NCBI GenBank assembly: GCA_003133565.1
Contig: PKYB01000075.1
Location: 1-51,650 of the forward strand
Direction: 5' to 3'
DNA from: Solirubrobacterales bacterium
GTDB taxonomy: Bacteria > Actinomycetota > Thermoleophilia > Solirubrobacterales > Solirubrobacteraceae
DNA length: 51,650 nucleotides
This document shows, piece after piece, positions 1,594 to 14,327 of this stretch. The position numbers and the translations under genes are program-made. Every line of letters begins with the position of its first letter. Positions within the stretch are counted from its first letter, which is position 1. The notes beneath the pieces were generated by a model. The model was not told the origin of the DNA. It saw nothing but the letters and a program-made list of their open reading frames with translations, and made no database searches.

Positions 1594-3777
1594 TTGCGGG
1601 CCATCATGATGGTGATGAGTAGCGCAGCCCGCCTCTCCGATGCACCGACTGAGCATGCCCCGCCACGCTTCGGCGGGACAACGGCGCCAACCCGCCAGGA
1701 GTTGCTAGCGACGCCATTCCGCTCACCGCGTCCCTCGCTGCTCGAAAAGTCGCTCGCGCTCCGCGGCAAGGCCGCCGAGGCGGCCGGCGCCCTGGGCCTC
1801 GAAAGCGTCGGCGATCTGCTCGAACACGTCCCTCGCGCGCGCCGCGAGGCTCGTACGGTGGTCGCGCTCACGCCGGGCGAGACCGCGACCGTGCTCGTCG
1901 AGGTCCGCTCGATCGCGCAGCGCTCGGTTCGCCGCCGCGGCATGCGCCCGCTGGTCGAGGCGACCGTGTCCGACGCGACCGGTCCGATGCAGGCCACGTT
2001 CTTCAACCAGCCGTGGCTGGTCGCACGCTACCCCGCCGGCACGCGGCTCGTACTGCACGGGAAGTACGAGGGCCGCAACCGCTTCCGCGTCTCCCACCAT
2101 GCGCGCACCGAAGAAGCGAGCGCCGGCGCCGACGAGGTGTCGCACTATGCAGCGACCGAGGGGCTCTCGAGCACGCAGATCCTGGCGCTCATGGGGCAAG
2201 CCCGTGATGCGCTGACCGAGGTCGTCGAGCCACTCCCCGGGCGACTGCGGGCCGCCGAGCGGATGCCGACTCGCAGCGCGGCACTCGAGGAAATGCACTT
2301 CGGCTCGCGCGCGGCCGACGTGGACCGCGCGCGCGAGCGGCTCGCATTCGAGGAGCTATTGCTGCTGCAGCTCGGGCTGCTGGCGCGCCGGGCGCAGCGC
2401 AACTCCGACGCGCGGGCGATCGCTCTGTCGAATCCCGCGACGCTGACCGCACGGTGGCTCGAGCACGGGCTCCCGTTCGTGCTCACCGCCGACCAACAGG
2501 CGGCGATCTCCGTGCTCTCGAGCGAGCTTGCCCAAGCACAACCGGCGCAGCGCCTGCTGATGGGCGAGGTCGGCAGCGGCAAGACCGTTGTTGCGCTGTA
2601 CGCGATGCTCCGCGCCGCCGAGTGCGGTGCGCAGGCGGCCTTGATGGCCCCGACCGAGACGCTCGCGGAACAGCACTTCGCGACGATCTCGGCGCTGCTC
2701 GGAGCCGAGCCGGCCACGCTGGCGCTGCTCACGGGATCGACGCCGGCCAGGCGCCGAGCGCAGGTTTTGAGCCGTCTGCAAACCGGCGAGCTGTCGCTGA
2801 TTGTCGGGACCCACGCGCTGATCGAAGAGCCGGTCAAGTTCGCCTCCCTGGCGCTCGCGGTCGTCGATGAGCAGCATCGCTTTGGCGTGCGCCAGCGCGC
2901 GGCGCTCGACGCCAAGGCACCAGCGGGATATGCGCCACACATGCTGCACATGACCGCAACGCCGATTCCCCGCACGCTCGCCCTCTGCCGCTACGGCGAC
3001 CTCGACCAGACCCACCTGCGCGAGCTACCGCTGCGCCGTAGCCCAATCGAGACGCACATCGTCTCCGGTCCGCGTGCTCGTGAGCGGGCCTACGAGCGGA
3101 TCGGCGAAGAGCTGCGCGCCGGTCGCCAGGCTTTCGTTGTCTGCCCGCTCGTCGACGAACCCGATGAAGTGGGCGCTGGCGATGCGCGGGCAGCCACCGC
3201 CGAGTTCGAGCGTCTCGGTTCGCGCGAGCTGCGCGACTTCCGCCTCGTGCTGCTCCATGGCCAGCTCACGCATCGCGAGAAGCAGGCCGCGATGGCGGCG
3301 TTCGCCGCCGGCGAGGCAGACGTGCTCGTCGCGACAACGGTGATCGAAGTTGGCATCGACGTTCCGAACGCTACGGTGATGTTGATCGAGAACGCCGAGC
3401 GTTTCGGGATCTCTCAGCTGCATCAGCTGCGCGGCCGCGTCGGTCGTGGGAAGCACCCGGGGCTCTGTCTGATGTGTGGAGCGAAGAGCTCGGAGCGTCT
3501 CTCCGCCCTGGCGCGCCACGACGATGGCTTCGAGCTCGCCGAGATCGACCTGCGCCAGCGCAAGGAGGGCGAGCTGATCGGTGTTCGCCAGTCGGGCCTC
3601 GGTCAGTTCCGCATCGCCCGACTACCCGATGACGAGCTCTTGCTGCAACGCGCGCGCGCCTGCGCTGAGGCGCTGATCGCCCTCGATCCGGGGCTCGAGA
3701 GCCCCGATCACGTGCTGCTGGGCCGCCAGCTCGCGCTGGCTCACGGTGAGATCGCGCCGCGCCCGATCGCTGCCTGA
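1594..3777 (+). CDS. recG: ATP-dependent DNA helicase RecG
   Basis: RecG is a branch-migrating superfamily 2 helicase that remodels stalled forks and Holliday junctions. The N-terminal third is the wedge/OB region. The helicase core shows Walker A GEVGSGKT near residue 326, the DEQH box (VVDEQHRFGVRQR) near 423, the TATPIPRT motif near 450, and a C-terminal helicase domain with QLRGRVGRG. Length (727 residues) fits the family. The start is unclear: TTG at 1594 gives the longest frame, ATG at 1606 or 1609 are alternatives, and none has a convincing ribosome binding site. The stop overlaps the start of rsmD by one base, indicating translational coupling. Confidence 0.96.
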   Translation: MRAIMMVMSSAARLSDAPTEHAPPRFGGTTAPTRQELLATPFRSPRPSLLEKSLALRGKAAEAAGALGLESVGDLLEHVPRARREARTVVALTPGETATVLVEVRSIAQRSVRRRGMRPLVEATVSDATGPMQATFFNQPWLVARYPAGTRLVLHGKYEGRNRFRVSHHARTEEASAGADEVSHYAATEGLSSTQILALMGQARDALTEVVEPLPGRLRAAERMPTRSAALEEMHFGSRAADVDRARERLAFEELLLLQLGLLARRAQRNSDARAIALSNPATLTARWLEHGLPFVLTADQQAAISVLSSELAQAQPAQRLLMGEVGSGKTVVALYAMLRAAECGAQAALMAPTETLAEQHFATISALLGAEPATLALLTGSTPARRRAQVLSRLQTGELSLIVGTHALIEEPVKFASLALAVVDEQHRFGVRQRAALDAKAPAGYAPHMLHMTATPIPRTLALCRYGDLDQTHLRELPLRRSPIETHIVSGPRARERAYERIGEELRAGRQAFVVCPLVDEPDEVGAGDARAATAEFERLGSRELRDFRLVLLHGQLTHREKQAAMAAFAAGEADVLVATTVIEVGIDVPNATVMLIENAERFGISQLHQLRGRVGRGKHPGLCLMCGAKSSERLSALARHDDGFELAEIDLRQRKEGELIGVRQSGLGQFRIARLPDDELLLQRARACAEALIALDPGLESPDHVLLGRQLALAHGEIAPRPIAA

Positions 3778-9991: not shown

Positions 9992-9997
9992 TATCGT
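9992..9997 (+). promoter_or_regulatory. possible -10 box (TATCGT) upstream of acpP
   Basis: TATCGT lies ten bases before ATG 10008 in the short plsX-acpP gap. It could give acpP its own start with a leader of about four bases. Weak evidence. Confidence 0.3.
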
Positions 9998-10007
9998 GGG
10001 CGCAACG

Positions 10008-10256
10008 ATGACTCGCGACGAAGTCCTCGAGTTGATCCGCGGGCACCTCGCCGAGGAGCTGGGCATCGATCCTCTTCGGATTGAGCCGGCCACTCGCTTC
10101 AGGGAGGATTTAGCCGTCGACTCGCTCGACCTGTACACGGTTATCCAAGAGCTCGAAGACACCTACGGCATCTCAATCTCTGATGAGCAGGCTATCCAGC
10201 TCCAGACCGTCGAGGCGACGGTCGACTTCGTCCTCTCTCACGCCCCTGACCGCTGA
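10008..10256 (+). CDS. acpP: acyl carrier protein
   Basis: ACP carries growing acyl chains on a phosphopantetheine arm. The attachment motif DSLDLYTVIQELE is present with Ser39 counted from ATG 10008. The protein is short, acidic and helical (82 residues). A GTG at 9996 would add four residues. It lies between plsX and rnc as in many bacteria and would serve both PlsX and fatty-acid synthesis. Confidence 0.95.
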   Translation: MTRDEVLELIRGHLAEELGIDPLRIEPATRFREDLAVDSLDLYTVIQELEDTYGISISDEQAIQLQTVEATVDFVLSHAPDR

Positions 10257-10270
10257 AGCTTCTCCGCGCA

Positions 10271-10975
10271 TTGATGGGCGAGTTGCCCGAGGATCTGCAA
10301 CGGCAGGTCTTCACGCACGCCTCGTGGACGGCGCGGCGCAGCGATTCCTACACCCGACTGGCGTTCCTCGGCGACAGCGTGCTCGCACTGGCGGTGACTG
10401 CTCACCTTTACCCGCGCCTGGAAGCCGAGAGCTTCGGCGCTGGGCGGCTGACAAAGATCCGTGCACAGGCGGTTTCGGGGCGCTCCTGCCGTGTCGTTGC
10501 CGAGGAGCTCGGCGTGGTCGAGATGCTGCTCGCGGCTGTGCCATCCGGCACCGCGCCGGCGGCGACGGCGGTCATCGAGACCGAGCGCGTTCTCGCCTCG
10601 GTGATCGAAGCGGTGATCGGCGCCTGCTATCTGACTGCCGGATACGACCGCACCGCGGCCGCCGTCGTCGAGGCGTTCGCCACGCAGATCGACGAGGCGC
10701 TCGAGTTCACCGTCGACTTCAAATCGACATTGCAGGAGCATCTCGCCCAGCGCGGCGAGGTTATCCACTACGAGGTGGTCGAGCAGCTGGGACCGCCACA
10801 CGACCGGCTCTTCACCGTCGAAGCGCGCCGCGGCGAGGAGACGCTCGCCCGCGGTACGGGTCGCAGCAAGAAGCAAGCCGAGCAGGACGCTGCGCGGATC
10901 GCGCTCGAAGGCCTCGGCTTGCTGCCCTTCGAGGACGGCACACGGGGCCCGGCCGAGTCCCAGCAAGGGCGGTGA
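10271..10975 (+). CDS. rnc: ribonuclease III with altered metal-ligand residues
   Basis: RNase III cleaves double-stranded RNA in rRNA and mRNA processing. An N-terminal nuclease domain (THASW near residue 15, RLAFLGDSVL near 29-38, IEAVIGACYL near 116-125) is followed by a dsRNA-binding domain (DFKSTLQEHLAQRG to GTGRSKKQAEQDAARIAL). Compared with E. coli, E38 is Thr, E41 is Ala and D114 is Ser, while D45 and E117 are kept. The N-terminus is about 12 residues shorter than usual; TTG 10271 or ATG 10274 is the likely start. It is seven bases upstream of smc. The family is certain; full catalytic activity is not. Confidence 0.92.
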   Translation: MMGELPEDLQRQVFTHASWTARRSDSYTRLAFLGDSVLALAVTAHLYPRLEAESFGAGRLTKIRAQAVSGRSCRVVAEELGVVEMLLAAVPSGTAPAATAVIETERVLASVIEAVIGACYLTAGYDRTAAAVVEAFATQIDEALEFTVDFKSTLQEHLAQRGEVIHYEVVEQLGPPHDRLFTVEARRGEETLARGTGRSKKQAEQDAARIALEGLGLLPFEDGTRGPAESQQGR

Positions 10976-10982
10976 GTACGCG

Positions 10983-13900
10983 ATGCATCTGAAGTCGATC
11001 ACGCTGAAGGGGTTCAAGTCCTTCCCGGAACGCACGAGCCTGGCCTTCGGTGACGGCGTGAGCGTCATCGTCGGCCCCAATGGGTCGGGCAAGTCCAACA
11101 TCACCGACGCGGTGCTCTGGGCGCTCGGCGAGCAGTCACCGCTCGCGGTGCGCGGGCGCTCGATGCAAGACGTCATCTTCGCCGGTGGCCAGGGGGTCCA
11201 GGCGCGCAACGAAGCAGAAGTGGAGCTCGTGCTCGACAACGCGGACGGGATCATCGGACTGCCGACGAGCGAGCTCTCGATCTCGCGCACGCTCAATCGT
11301 GCCGGCGAAGGCGAGTATCGGGTCAACGGTGCGCGCTGCCGGCTCAGCGATGTGCTCGAGCTGCTCTCCGACACCGGGCTGGGCAAGGAGGCGCACTCGG
11401 TGATCTCACAGGGTCGCGTCGAGTCGATCGTGACGTCCAAGCCGCGTGAGCGGCGGCTGCTGATCGAGGAGGCGGCGGGCCTCGGCAAGCACCGCAAGCG
11501 CCGTCGTCGCGCGCAGCTCAAGCTCGAGCGCACAGCGGAAAACCTTGATCGTGGCCTCGACATCGAGCGCGAGGCACGCTCGAGGCTGCGTCCACTGAAG
11601 CGCCAGGCCGAGGCCGCCGAGCTCCACGAACGCCTCGAGCGCCAATCGTTGGAGGCGCGCTGGACGCTCGGCCGTGAAGCCCTTCGCGAGCGCCGCGCGC
11701 GGCTGGCCGGCGCCGAAGCAGCAGCGGCGAAGGCGAGGTCCGAGCGGGAAAGTGTCCAGGCCGAGCTGGCGCTCGTTGCCCAACGCCGCCAGCAGTCAGA
11801 GGAGGCGCTCGCGGGGCGCAGCGCGCGCCACGATGAGATAGCCGGTCGCGCTTTCCGGTCTCGCTCCACCCACGAGCACCTCCTGCTGCGCTTGGAGCAG
11901 ACCCGCACGCTCGTCCTCACGCTCACGGCACGCAGCGAGCGCCGCACGGTAGAGCTGGCTGCCCTCCAAAGCCGCAGCGACGAGGACGAGCACGATGGGT
12001 CGGGTCGCATCGAGCAACTCGAGGCGGAGCTTGGAGAGCTCGACCGCCAGCGCGCGGAGCGCCTCGGACTCGAGCTCGCCGAGCTCGAGCGCTCGCACGC
12101 GGCAGCGGTTGCGGCCGTTTCCGAGCTTGCCGCTGCCTGCGATGACCAGCGGGCCTTGGGCGTCGAGGCGGAAACGCGTGCCGCGACGGCTCGCGAGGAG
12201 CTCCGCGAGAACGAGGGTGCCGTCGAGCGCGCGCGGCGCGAGGCGGCACACGTCGGCGCCGAGCTTGCCGGCGTCAACCAGTTCCTGCGCAGCCACGCCG
12301 CGGCCGCCGGCCCTACCGACGTGCTCGAAGGACGCATTCAGGTGGATCCGGGCTATGAGCTTGCCCTCGCGGCCGTGCTCGGTGGCCGTCTTGGCGCGTG
12401 GCTGGCTGAGGATCGTCGCGAAGCCGAGGCTCTGGTGGAGCGGGCCGGCGACGACGGCGCGCGCGCACTGGTGGCTGCCGGCAGTGAGCCCGGTGCGCCG
12501 TCGGCGCCGTCTCCCGGCGGCGGCGCCGAGCGCCTCGCCGACTTCGTACACGGGGATGGCAAGGTGCTGGCTGTGCTCGGTCGGTTACTTCTCGACACCT
12601 GGGTGGTCGCGCAGCTCGACGACCTTCCCAGCGACTTTGCCGGCGTCGCGGTGACGCGCTCTGGCCGCGTCTGGAACGGCGCGCTTGGCGAGCTTACGCA
12701 GGAGCCGAGTGGCGGGCGCCAGCGTGCGCTCGAGCAGCGCAATCGACGCGAGGCCCTGATCGCCGAATCTGAGCTGGCGGTCCAGGCTGAGCAGCGGGCG
12801 CTCGCCGACCTTGCGCTGGCGCAGACCGCCTTGCAACTCGCGCTCGACCAACGTGAGACGGCGGAGGCAGCGCTGAGAGCCGCGGAACGCAACCACGCCG
12901 AGGCGCTCGAGCGTGCGCGACTCGCGGGCTGGCTTGTCGATCAACGCCGCGAGGCGCCTGATGCCGGCGAGATGGCGGTGCGGCGCGCCGAGGTCGAGGG
13001 CGAGCTCGCCGCCGAGCGCCGGGCGGTAGAGCGAGTCGAGCGCGAGCGGCGCGCCCGGGAGCGACGAATCGAGATTCTTGCCAGTCAGGCGGAAATGGAT
13101 CGCACGCTCCTACCACAAGTCGAGCGCTTCGCCGGTGTGCTTGAGACGCTCGGTGGGGCACTGCTCGCGCGCCTCGCGGTGCTTGACGAGGAGCTCGCGG
13201 CAGACCGCTCTGCCGGTGAAGCGCTCGCCGCCGAGCTGCGCGAATGCACCGGCGCAGAAACCGTCTTGCAGGCTCGGCTGCGAGAGAGCGCGGACGCGCT
13301 GACGGGTGCCGAGGTAGGGGCCCAGCAGGCTCGAGATCAAACCGCCGAGGCCGAGCTCGAGCTGGGCGGGCTCGCCGACAAGCTCGGCCTGGAAGCGACA
13401 GCCGGCGGGGAACCGCTCAGCGAAGACGAGAGCAGCGAGTTGCGCGATCGCGTCGAACGACTCGCCCGCCGCCGGATACAACTCGGGCCCGTCAACCCGC
13501 TTGCCGGCGAGGAGTACCGCGAGGCACTCTCGCGCGTCGAGGAACTCGAAGCCCAGCGTGTCGACCTCGAAGCTGCGCTGCGCGAGCTGCAACAGGTGAT
13601 TCGTGACGCCGACCGCCAGATCAGCGAAAGCTTTGAGGCCACCTTCGCTGCGGCGGCACAAAATTTCGAGGATCTTGTCGAGGACGTCTTTCCCGGCGGC
13701 CGCGGCCGTCTGCGCCTCGTGCAGGACGAGAGCGCGCCGCCGCCGGTGCTCGGCGACGAGCCCCCTGGGGGGGCCGACGATGAGGCCGGTGTTGAGGCCG
13801 ACGGTGAGCAAAGCGCCGAGCGCGAAGCCGAGCACGCCGCGGCCCGCGCCGAGGGTGAGGACCCCGAGGACACACTCGGCGTCGAGATCGAGATCACGCC

Positions 13901-14327
13901 CGCCGGAAAGTCGATGCAGCGGCTCTCGCTGCTATCGGGCGGTGAGAAGTCGATGACCGCGATCGCCTTTCTCTTCGCGGTTTTCCTTGCCCGGCCGTGT
14001 CCGTTCTACATCCTCGACGAGGTCGAGGCCGCGCTGGACGATCTCAACATCGATCGCTTCCTGGCGCTGCTCCGCCGCCACAGCACGCGCGCCCAGTTCA
14101 TCGTCGTGACCCACCAGAAGCGAACGATGGAGGCTGCCGACTGGCTCTATGGCGTGTCGATGGGCAGCGACGGCACATCGAAAGTGATTTCGCGCAAGCT
14201 CGGCGACGACGGCCTGCACGAGCTTGAGCAACCGGTGATCGAGGCGTCCGTGGGTCCCTCCGGCGGTGGCGCCGGAAGTGCCGGTCGCGGCGGGGTCGCA
14301 TCGCTCGCCGCCGTCGACGCGGCCTAG
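10983..14327 (+). CDS. smc: chromosome segregation ATPase SMC
   Basis: SMC forms the bacterial condensin that folds and separates chromosomes. The head is split: Walker A GPNGSGKSN at residues 31-39, then two coiled-coil arms around a hinge near residues 440-580 (PTDVLEGRIQVDPGYELALAA region), then the signature LSGGEKSMTA near 985 and Walker B FYILDEVEAALDD near 1010. Its 1114 residues are slightly short of the typical 1180. An acidic, low-complexity insertion of about 45 residues (near 920-965) sits just before the signature motif. rnc-smc-ftsY order is conserved. Confidence 0.97.
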   Translation: MHLKSITLKGFKSFPERTSLAFGDGVSVIVGPNGSGKSNITDAVLWALGEQSPLAVRGRSMQDVIFAGGQGVQARNEAEVELVLDNADGIIGLPTSELSISRTLNRAGEGEYRVNGARCRLSDVLELLSDTGLGKEAHSVISQGRVESIVTSKPRERRLLIEEAAGLGKHRKRRRRAQLKLERTAENLDRGLDIEREARSRLRPLKRQAEAAELHERLERQSLEARWTLGREALRERRARLAGAEAAAAKARSERESVQAELALVAQRRQQSEEALAGRSARHDEIAGRAFRSRSTHEHLLLRLEQTRTLVLTLTARSERRTVELAALQSRSDEDEHDGSGRIEQLEAELGELDRQRAERLGLELAELERSHAAAVAAVSELAAACDDQRALGVEAETRAATAREELRENEGAVERARREAAHVGAELAGVNQFLRSHAAAAGPTDVLEGRIQVDPGYELALAAVLGGRLGAWLAEDRREAEALVERAGDDGARALVAAGSEPGAPSAPSPGGGAERLADFVHGDGKVLAVLGRLLLDTWVVAQLDDLPSDFAGVAVTRSGRVWNGALGELTQEPSGGRQRALEQRNRREALIAESELAVQAEQRALADLALAQTALQLALDQRETAEAALRAAERNHAEALERARLAGWLVDQRREAPDAGEMAVRRAEVEGELAAERRAVERVERERRARERRIEILASQAEMDRTLLPQVERFAGVLETLGGALLARLAVLDEELAADRSAGEALAAELRECTGAETVLQARLRESADALTGAEVGAQQARDQTAEAELELGGLADKLGLEATAGGEPLSEDESSELRDRVERLARRRIQLGPVNPLAGEEYREALSRVEELEAQRVDLEAALRELQQVIRDADRQISESFEATFAAAAQNFEDLVEDVFPGGRGRLRLVQDESAPPPVLGDEPPGGADDEAGVEADGEQSAEREAEHAAARAEGEDPEDTLGVEIEITPAGKSMQRLSLLSGGEKSMTAIAFLFAVFLARPCPFYILDEVEAALDDLNIDRFLALLRRHSTRAQFIVVTHQKRTMEAADWLYGVSMGSDGTSKVISRKLGDDGLHELEQPVIEASVGPSGGGAGSAGRGGVASLAAVDAA

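What the first reader, a model, noticed from the sequence alone, without database searches (positions are those of the whole stretch)
10271..10975. RNase III lacking two conserved metal-ligand residues
Aligned by eye to E. coli RNase III, the signature reads TRLAFLGDS instead of ERLEFLGDS (E38T, E41A) and the second motif reads LASVIEA instead of LADTVEA (D114S), while D45 and E117 remain. E41 and D114 normally help hold Mg ions. The dsRNA-binding domain is intact. The enzyme may cut weakly, use a different metal site or mainly bind RNA. The RLAFLGDS form may be shared by the whole clade.
Basis: partly seen in the sequence, partly recalled or inferred. Interest (0 to 1): 0.5.

Follow-up and report, generated by a model that had tools for sequence, protein, structure and literature searches.

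The report
RNase III with half its metal-site acids
A whole order of bacteria (Solirubrobacterales) carries, as its only detected RNase III, a double-stranded-RNA cutter that has lost two of the four acidic active-site residues usually called conserved in all such enzymes, yet sequence evidence suggests it still cuts RNA.

Summary
The window's rnc reads TRLAFLGDS and VLASVIEA: E38T, E41A, D114S (E. coli numbers), with D45, E117 and the dsRNA-binding domain kept; E65 is lost too. This is not an error or a private mutation. A41 is in 92 of 92 homologues of the order and 80 of the 80 best named loci; E41 is in 74 of 74 sister-family sequences of the class and 29 of 29 from other classes. On a 101-row tree E41A needs one change; position 114 changed several times, also in relatives that keep E41. 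D45 and E117 never vary. Of 138 order genomes with an RNase III hit, 137 have just one. The gene is under purifying selection, and a long, covarying 23S flank stem is kept in 10 of 10 genomes tested. Active Mini-III has Ala and Thr at these two positions. An order-wide Arg/Lys stands where eukaryotic RNase IIIs have a catalytic lysine. Most likely this is an active nuclease with a reduced, two-carboxylate site; no activity was measured, and several of its single changes weaken the E. coli enzyme. A new variant of a known enzyme.

The parts
10271..10975 (+). rnc: RNase III orthologue, 234 aa, TTG start
   Evidence: Pfam PF14622/PF00636/PF00035; between acpP and smc
10289..10678 (+). RNase III domain (residues 7-136)
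   Evidence: PF14622 2.7e-21; AF2 model mean pLDDT 86, pTM 0.65; best fold match E. coli RNase III 7r97, Z 19.0, rmsd 3.8, 209 aligned
10352..10354 (+). T28 = E. coli E38 (RNA-surface position), lost here, variable in the order
10361..10363 (+). A31 = E. coli E41 (MgA ligand), lost in every order homologue examined
   Evidence: 92 of 92 order rows A; 80 of 80
10373..10375 (+). D35 = E. coli D45 (MgB ligand), invariant
10439..10441 (+). A57 = E. coli E65 (RNA-surface acid), lost in most of the order
   Evidence: E in 3 of 92 order rows, against 73 of 74 sister-family rows and 29 of 29 from other classes
10586..10588 (+). R106 = E. coli position 110; same -4 position as the catalytic lysine of eukaryotic RNase IIIs
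   Evidence: R/K in 86 of 92 order rows and in 0 of 29 rows from other classes, 4 of 74 sister-family rows; HMMER aligns it with Drosha K of KTLAD; EhRNaseIII K112/D116 (PMC5357909)
10598..10600 (+). S110 = E. coli D114, lost
   Evidence: S 79, E 11, D 1 of 91 readable order rows
10607..10609 (+). E113 = E. coli E117 (bridges MgA and MgB), invariant
10721..10912 (+). dsRNA-binding domain (residues 151-214)
   Evidence: PF00035 1.9e-16
9996..10256 (+). acpP (acyl carrier protein), conserved upstream neighbour
   Evidence: PF00550; just upstream in 77 of the 77 loci (of 80) with room
10983..14327 (+). smc, conserved downstream neighbour
   Evidence: PF02463; downstream on the same strand in 77 of the 77 loci (of 80) with room

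Best explanation
This is the order's sole detected rnc, an orthologue of bacterial RNase III that most likely remains a working dsRNA endonuclease and pre-rRNA processor, with a reduced active site. Of the four catalytic carboxylates (E41, D45, D114, E117) only D45 and E117 remain. In E. coli, E117 bridges both Mg ions and D45 holds MgB; here MgA would be held by E117, the scissile phosphate and waters. Mini-III appears to have such a site too, reached independently. Loss of E38 (in the window) and of E65 also removes negative charge from the RNA-binding valley. An order-wide Arg/Lys at E. coli position 110, where eukaryotic RNase IIIs carry a catalytic lysine, may supply part of the positive charge at the scissile phosphate. 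Shown: the substitutions, their order-wide fixation, single-copy status at Pfam sensitivity, constraint, and the kept rRNA stem. Inferred: catalysis, metal geometry, convergence with Mini-III, and the role of the Arg.
For: D45 and E117 are invariant in all readable order rows while E41 is gone from all. E41A maps to one change on the tree; acid/non-acid at 114 changes 9 times, including in sister families that keep E41, so D114 seems dispensable in this class. No second RNase III: 138 of 151 order genomes have PF00636, 137 of them once; the model does detect Mini-III (1.9e-27). Purifying selection: dN 0.11-0.18 against dS 0.76-0.80 with three congeners; acpP and smc flank it in 77 of 77 loci each. 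A long 23S flank stem is kept in 10 of 10 order genomes, score 65-89 against shuffle maxima 34-44, with two-sided changes at 18 of 35 counted pair positions. Mini-III has A four before its catalytic D and T three before its catalytic E; the PDB chains 6tnn and 4oun carry N and Q at just those two acids, while B. cereus 1u61 has the wild-type D and E; E106Q fully inactivates BsMini-III (PMC5141509, passage). In E. coli, E117K/A/Q have no activity in vivo or in vitro and D45A none in vivo, low in vitro; E41A and D114A are weak in vitro, not done in vivo (PMC8708148, passage).
Against: No activity data. Each of E38A, E41A, E65A, E100A and D114A alone makes E. coli RNase III weak in vitro, and E65A and E38V have no activity in vivo (PMC8708148 Table 1); the window protein combines changes at all five places, untested together. 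Mini-III lacks a dsRBD, so the parallel is by position; reliance on its D23 is inferred from the 6tnn mutation. The fold matches include mitoribosomal proteins of this fold (recalled to be inactive), so fold says nothing about activity. The kept 23S stem could be processed by another enzyme or kept for assembly. The link between Arg110 and loss of the acid at 114 is not significant after correcting for kinship. The model has no metals or RNA, and no distances were measured.
Confidence: 0.7

Rival explanations
1. A substitute carboxylate from elsewhere in the fold, or from the partner subunit, takes over the E41 role, so the four-ligand site is in effect rebuilt.
For: Some columns are often acidic in the order: position 25 (84%) six residues before A31, position 105 (84%) next to R106, position 126 (90%, also often E in sister families). 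A minority have E114 (11 of 91 readable order rows).
Against: Outside D35 and E113, the acidic columns at 98% or more among 90 order rows are D149, E156 and E204, beyond the nuclease domain; D149 and E156 are equally fixed in the 30 sister rows of that call. No new fixed acid appears in the nuclease domain.
Confidence: 0.12
2. A catalytically dead or nearly dead dsRNA-binding protein that regulates by binding, as E. coli rnc70 can.
For: Two catalytic carboxylates are gone; the dsRBD is intact; E. coli mutants can bind without cutting (PMC8708148). Loss of E38 and E65 is read as stabilising the RNA complex in PMC9291653, although PMC8708148 Table 1 lists E65A binding as low.
Against: D45 and E117 are invariant over the order rows examined, which a binding-only role should not need; it is the only RNase III detected; the 23S stem covaries.
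Confidence: 0.12
3. An active enzyme with shifted metal need (for example Mn, or high Mg), slow and selective, doing only a few cuts such as pre-23S. This is a special case of the best explanation, not exclusive of it.
For: Loss of a direct MgA ligand should weaken metal binding (inference); Mini-III cuts pre-rRNA efficiently only with ribosomal protein L3 (PMC5141509, passage); single mutants of E. coli are weak in vitro (PMC8708148).
Against: Not testable by sequence; nothing found that speaks for Mn over Mg.
Confidence: 0.3

Closest known systems
Bacterial RNase III (Rnc; E. coli, M. tuberculosis, A. aeolicus)
   Same: Same two-domain layout and fold (7r97 Z 19.0, rmsd 3.8, 209 aligned; 2nug Z 18.4, rmsd 3.7, 201 aligned), D45 and E117
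   Different: E41, D114 and E65 lost, E38 relaxed, loop around E100 changed, Arg at 110; TIGR02191 score 150.2 below its 166.25 cut-off
Mini-III (class 4 RNase III; B. subtilis MrnC)
   Same: Ala at the E41 position, small hydroxyl residue at the D114 position, D45 and E117 equivalents kept
   Different: Mini-III has no dsRBD and a different alpha5-alpha6 region (PMC4357697, passage); the window protein has a dsRBD and is nested among class Rnc sequences, so the likeness is probably convergent
Eukaryotic RNase IIIs (Rnt1p, Dcr1, Drosha, EhRNaseIII)
   Same: Basic residue four positions before the D114 position, where they have the catalytic lysine
   Different: They keep E41 and, with some D-to-N exceptions in class III first domains, D114 (PMC5357909, passage), and use Lys with an extra Asn; here it is mostly Arg and the two acids are gone
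EcEEQ 'bacterial Dicer' (E38A/E65A/Q165A of E. coli RNase III)
   Same: The window protein also lacks E38 and E65
   Different: EcEEQ keeps all four catalytic carboxylates and is engineered (PMC9291653, passages)
Rnc of sister families in the same class
   Same: Similarly changed loop and, in several families, D114 lost (A, G or N)
   Different: They keep E41 in 74 of 74 and E65 in 73 of 74

Membership tests
Bacterial RNase III (Rnc orthologue) | RNase III domain followed by a dsRBD | tested here: met
   PF14622, PF00636 and PF00035 above cut-off
Bacterial RNase III (Rnc orthologue) | Descent within Rnc and conserved gene neighbourhood | tested here: met
   Order rows form one clade (SH-aLRT 100, quick tree) inside the class Rnc rows; acpP and smc flank it in 77 of 77 loci each
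Canonical four-carboxylate RNase III | Signature ERLEFLGDS with E41 | tested here: not met
   TRLAFLGDS; A41 in 92 of 92
Canonical four-carboxylate RNase III | Four catalytic carboxylates E41, D45, D114, E117 | tested here: not met
   Only D45 and E117 remain. So it is filed as a divergent rnc lineage, not as a canonical RNase III
Canonical four-carboxylate RNase III | NCBIfam TIGR02191 equivalog cut-off | tested here: not met
   150.2 against 166.25 bits
Bacterial RNase III (Rnc orthologue) | Homodimer with Mg-dependent dsRNA cleavage | not testable with these tools
   needs an assay
Mini-III | Catalytic domain only, no dsRBD | tested here: not met
   dsRBD present
Mini-III | A/D/T/E active-site pattern (not a formal definition) | tested here: met
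   A/D/S/E here, A/D/T/E in Mini-III
Eukaryotic-type RNase III | Lys four before D114, with all four acids | tested here: not met
   Arg at the Lys position, two acids missing
Eukaryotic-type RNase III | Extra conserved Asn | not tested
   position not mapped here

The most novel reading that the evidence does not exclude
Solirubrobacterales RNase III is a naturally charge-stripped enzyme: two carboxylates plus an arginine do the work of four carboxylates and an extra metal ion (the arginine acting like the eukaryotic catalytic lysine), and the missing E38 and E65 make it load densely on long dsRNA and release Dicer-like small products.
Probability: 0.2. Interest if true: 0.75.

Novelty: new variant of a known kind. 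Interest (0 to 1): 0.52.

Why it matters
[quoted passage not shown] Exceptions were already known at D114 (D-to-N in some eukaryotic first domains, PMC5357909) and are visible in Mini-III. A whole bacterial order, cultured strains included, departs at two of the four in its only detected, dsRBD-bearing RNase III. That makes the minimal metal site of the full-length enzyme directly testable, with close relatives that keep E41 and/or D114 as natural controls.

Tried and rejected
Sequencing error or pseudogene: rejected, since A41 is fixed order-wide and the gene is constrained. A second canonical RNase III or Mini-III covering for it: not found at PF00636 sensitivity, with Mini-III shown detectable; one genome (G284) had two hits, the second near a contig start; 13 of 151 genomes had none, most of them incomplete. 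A substitute fixed carboxylate in the nuclease domain: not found. Coupling of Arg110 with loss of the acid at 114: Fisher p 3e-6 uncorrected, but of 4 independent pairs on starred branches 2-3 agree and none opposes, which cannot reach significance; kept only as a lead. Viral homologues: two loci, both with E41, D45 and E117, but R and S at 114. A first DNA pattern missed AGY serine codons, including the window itself, and was replaced. Duplexfold on long 23S flanks did not separate real from shuffled flanks clearly (L201 within the shuffle range, L202 just outside it) and, for L203, used the wrong strand; replaced by a local-stem method. One search also ran L203 on the wrong strand, with no stem (33 against a shuffle maximum of 39). 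The listed fold matches (best 50 entries) include no bacterial Mini-III; that is not evidence against kinship.

Weak points in the counts: order row L093 (G004) is frameshifted after residue 103, so its letters at 110, 114 and 117 are not reliable; L082 has a frameshifted or cut start. Many class and phylum sequences were fetched through a pattern that allows A, D or E at 41, so they are not biased between these but do require the rest of the motif; others came by protein search (25 of 30 genomes matched, one partial match, L149, dropped). Listings were cut; statements about sister families rest on the 74 sequences, and about other classes on 29 (30 loci given out of 220 matching among 246 genomes, L190 dropped as no relative). 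The tree is a quick one (SH-aLRT only) of 101 chosen rows. For 23S stems, G041 and G077 gave no LSU match and G106 (outside the order) only pieces, and G065 only pieces; these four were not used. The pair counts come from an alignment chosen for pairing, cover only positions -12 to 22 with 7 or more genomes, and lean towards pairing; E. coli rrlB scored 37 against a shuffle maximum of 28 with the same method. Each shuffle set was 15 or 30.

Full report
What is there. Window 10271-10975 (+) encodes a 234-aa RNase III starting with TTG. Around it lie yceD, an ORF not searched here, the L32 gene, plsX, acpP, rnc, smc and an SRP54-type GTPase gene (ftsY; gene name recalled). Both domains score above the Pfam cut-offs, but the NCBI equivalog model TIGR02191 does not reach its cut-off (150.2 against 166.25).

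How widespread. Of 101 genomes (the window's own and 100 relatives), 92 gave a match. Their translated genes, window included, show A41 in 92 of 92 and D45 in 92 of 92. E117 is in all 91 readable rows (the 92nd, L093, is frameshifted). Position 114 is S in 79, E in 11 and D in 1 of 91 readable rows. E65 is kept in 3 of 92. A scan of named GTDB genomes found 536 relatives; the best 80 all have A41, D45 and E117, with S 76, E 3 and D 1 at 114. They include Solirubrobacter phytolaccae KCTC 29190, Conexibacter sp. S30A1, Patulibacter medicamentivorans and P. minatonensis; 57 of 80 are Solirubrobacterales by NCBI title, 6 Thermoleophilaceae, 16 have no order and one is titled Bifidobacterium breve.

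Sister families. Seven other families of the same class (74 sequences) have E41 in 74 of 74 and E65 in 73 of 74, but D114 is often lost: A or G in 19 of 19 (f5), A in 11 of 11 (f7) and 18 of 18 (f9), N in 3 of 4 (f8), A in 2 of 8 (f10) and 1 of 2 (f11, the other E); it is D in 12 of 12 (f6). Other classes of the phylum (29 sequences) keep all seven acids. On a quick tree of 101 chosen rows built without the trait columns, E41A needs 1 change, E65 against not-E 2, and acid/non-acid at 114 nine; the order rows form one clade (SH-aLRT 100). Such counts do not tell gain from loss; my reading, an inference, is that the loop and D114 eroded within the class and that E41 and E65 went at the base of the order.

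Is it the only one. PF00636 hits 138 of 151 order genomes, 137 of them exactly once; in the own genome (86% complete) it hits once. The same model finds Mini-III at 1.9e-27, so a Mini-III should have been seen. Among genomes at least 90% complete and at most 5% contaminated, 96 of 97 have the gene.

Is it still under use. Against three congeners dN is 0.11-0.18 and dS 0.76-0.80; acpP lies just upstream in 77 of 77 loci with room and smc downstream in 77 of 77. The usual RNase III substrate, the stem formed by the two flanks of 23S rRNA, is present in 10 of 10 order genomes with a full 23S match: pairing scores 65-89 against shuffle maxima of 34-44. Of 35 pair positions counted, 18 show changes on both sides. 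This supports, but does not prove, cleavage by this enzyme.

How it may work. In the E. coli post-cleavage structure MgA is held by E41 and E117 and MgB by D45 and E117; D114 does not touch Mg; E38 and E65 face the RNA, and that paper reads their removal as stabilising the protein-RNA complex (PMC9291653, passages). Losing E41 removes one protein ligand of MgA and leaves the bridging E117 and D45. Mini-III, an active member of the superfamily, suggests that such a site can work: it has Ala four residues before its catalytic Asp and Thr three before its catalytic Glu, and the chains 6tnn and 4oun carry Asn and Gln at those two acids; E106Q fully inactivates it (PMC5141509, passage). In E. coli, E117K/A/Q have no activity and D45A none in vivo (PMC8708148 Table 1). 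The same table speaks against ease: E41A, D114A, E38A, E65A and E100A are each weak in vitro, E65A and E38V inactive in vivo, and E65A binding low, which also conflicts with the other paper's reading of E65.

A possible compensation. Position 110 is R or K in 86 of 92 order rows, but S in 28 and A in 1 of 29 rows from other classes, and R or K in only 4 of 74 sister rows, where N (46) and S (17) prevail. It lies four residues before position 114. In EhRNaseIII the catalytic lysine K112 lies four before D116, and the paper says this lysine is not conserved in bacterial RNase IIIs (PMC5357909, passages); HMMER aligns R106 of the window with the Lys of Drosha's KTLAD. In Rnt1p this lysine contacts the scissile phosphate and keeps the third Mg out (PMC9291653, passage). 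In the model, residues 105-123 form one helix, so R106, S110 and E113 should lie on one face; no distances were measured. The five order rows with S or H at 110 all have E or D at 114, as expected if the charges are linked, but seven other rows with an acid at 114 keep R or K, and independent pairs are too few. This is a hypothesis.

What it is not. It is not a Mini-III (it has a dsRBD), and not a canonical four-carboxylate RNase III. It is an orthologue of rnc with a reduced site: a new variant of a known kind. In the held library no paper holds both RNase III and Thermoleophilia, or RNase III, ribonuclease and Solirubrobacter. The other searches listed no such report by title; I saw passages of five papers (PMC4357697, PMC8708148, PMC9291653, PMC5141509, PMC5357909) and only listings of the rest. 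The library lacks most subscription journals, so this is weak evidence that the variant is unreported.

Noticed in passing
L294:3521-4263 (23S rRNA of G027; contig length equals Conexibacter sp. S30A1 NZ_CP097127.1): A 743-nt insertion in 23S, absent from the same-genus G043; it holds a 182-aa ORF that looks like a LAGLIDADG-type endonuclease (by eye, not searched) and a group I intron match below the gathering score (31.4 against 50 bits, E 4.8e-6). Probably an intron-borne homing endonuclease.
   Followed up: partly
L286 and L287 (IMG/VR contigs, match at 2501-3100 and 1715-2269): RNase III homologues on viral contigs keep E41, D45 and E117 but have R and S at the D114 position, so D114 is replaced outside this class too.
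   Followed up: no
L221 (CAMCUD010000020.1): Record titled Bifidobacterium breve MAG carries an rnc 67% identical to the window's: likely a mislabelled record.
   Followed up: no
L093 (G004:C4:32950-33950): rnc matches lie in two adjoining frames, a frameshift in the gene or the assembly.
   Followed up: no
L295-L298 (G065) and L204-L205 (G106): 23S matches come in several neighbouring pieces instead of one; may reflect insertions, fragmented rRNA or the search's candidate limit.
   Followed up: no
window:10271-10273: TTG start; the open frame is 241 codons, so at most seven more residues upstream; the N-terminus is shorter than in E. coli.
   Followed up: no
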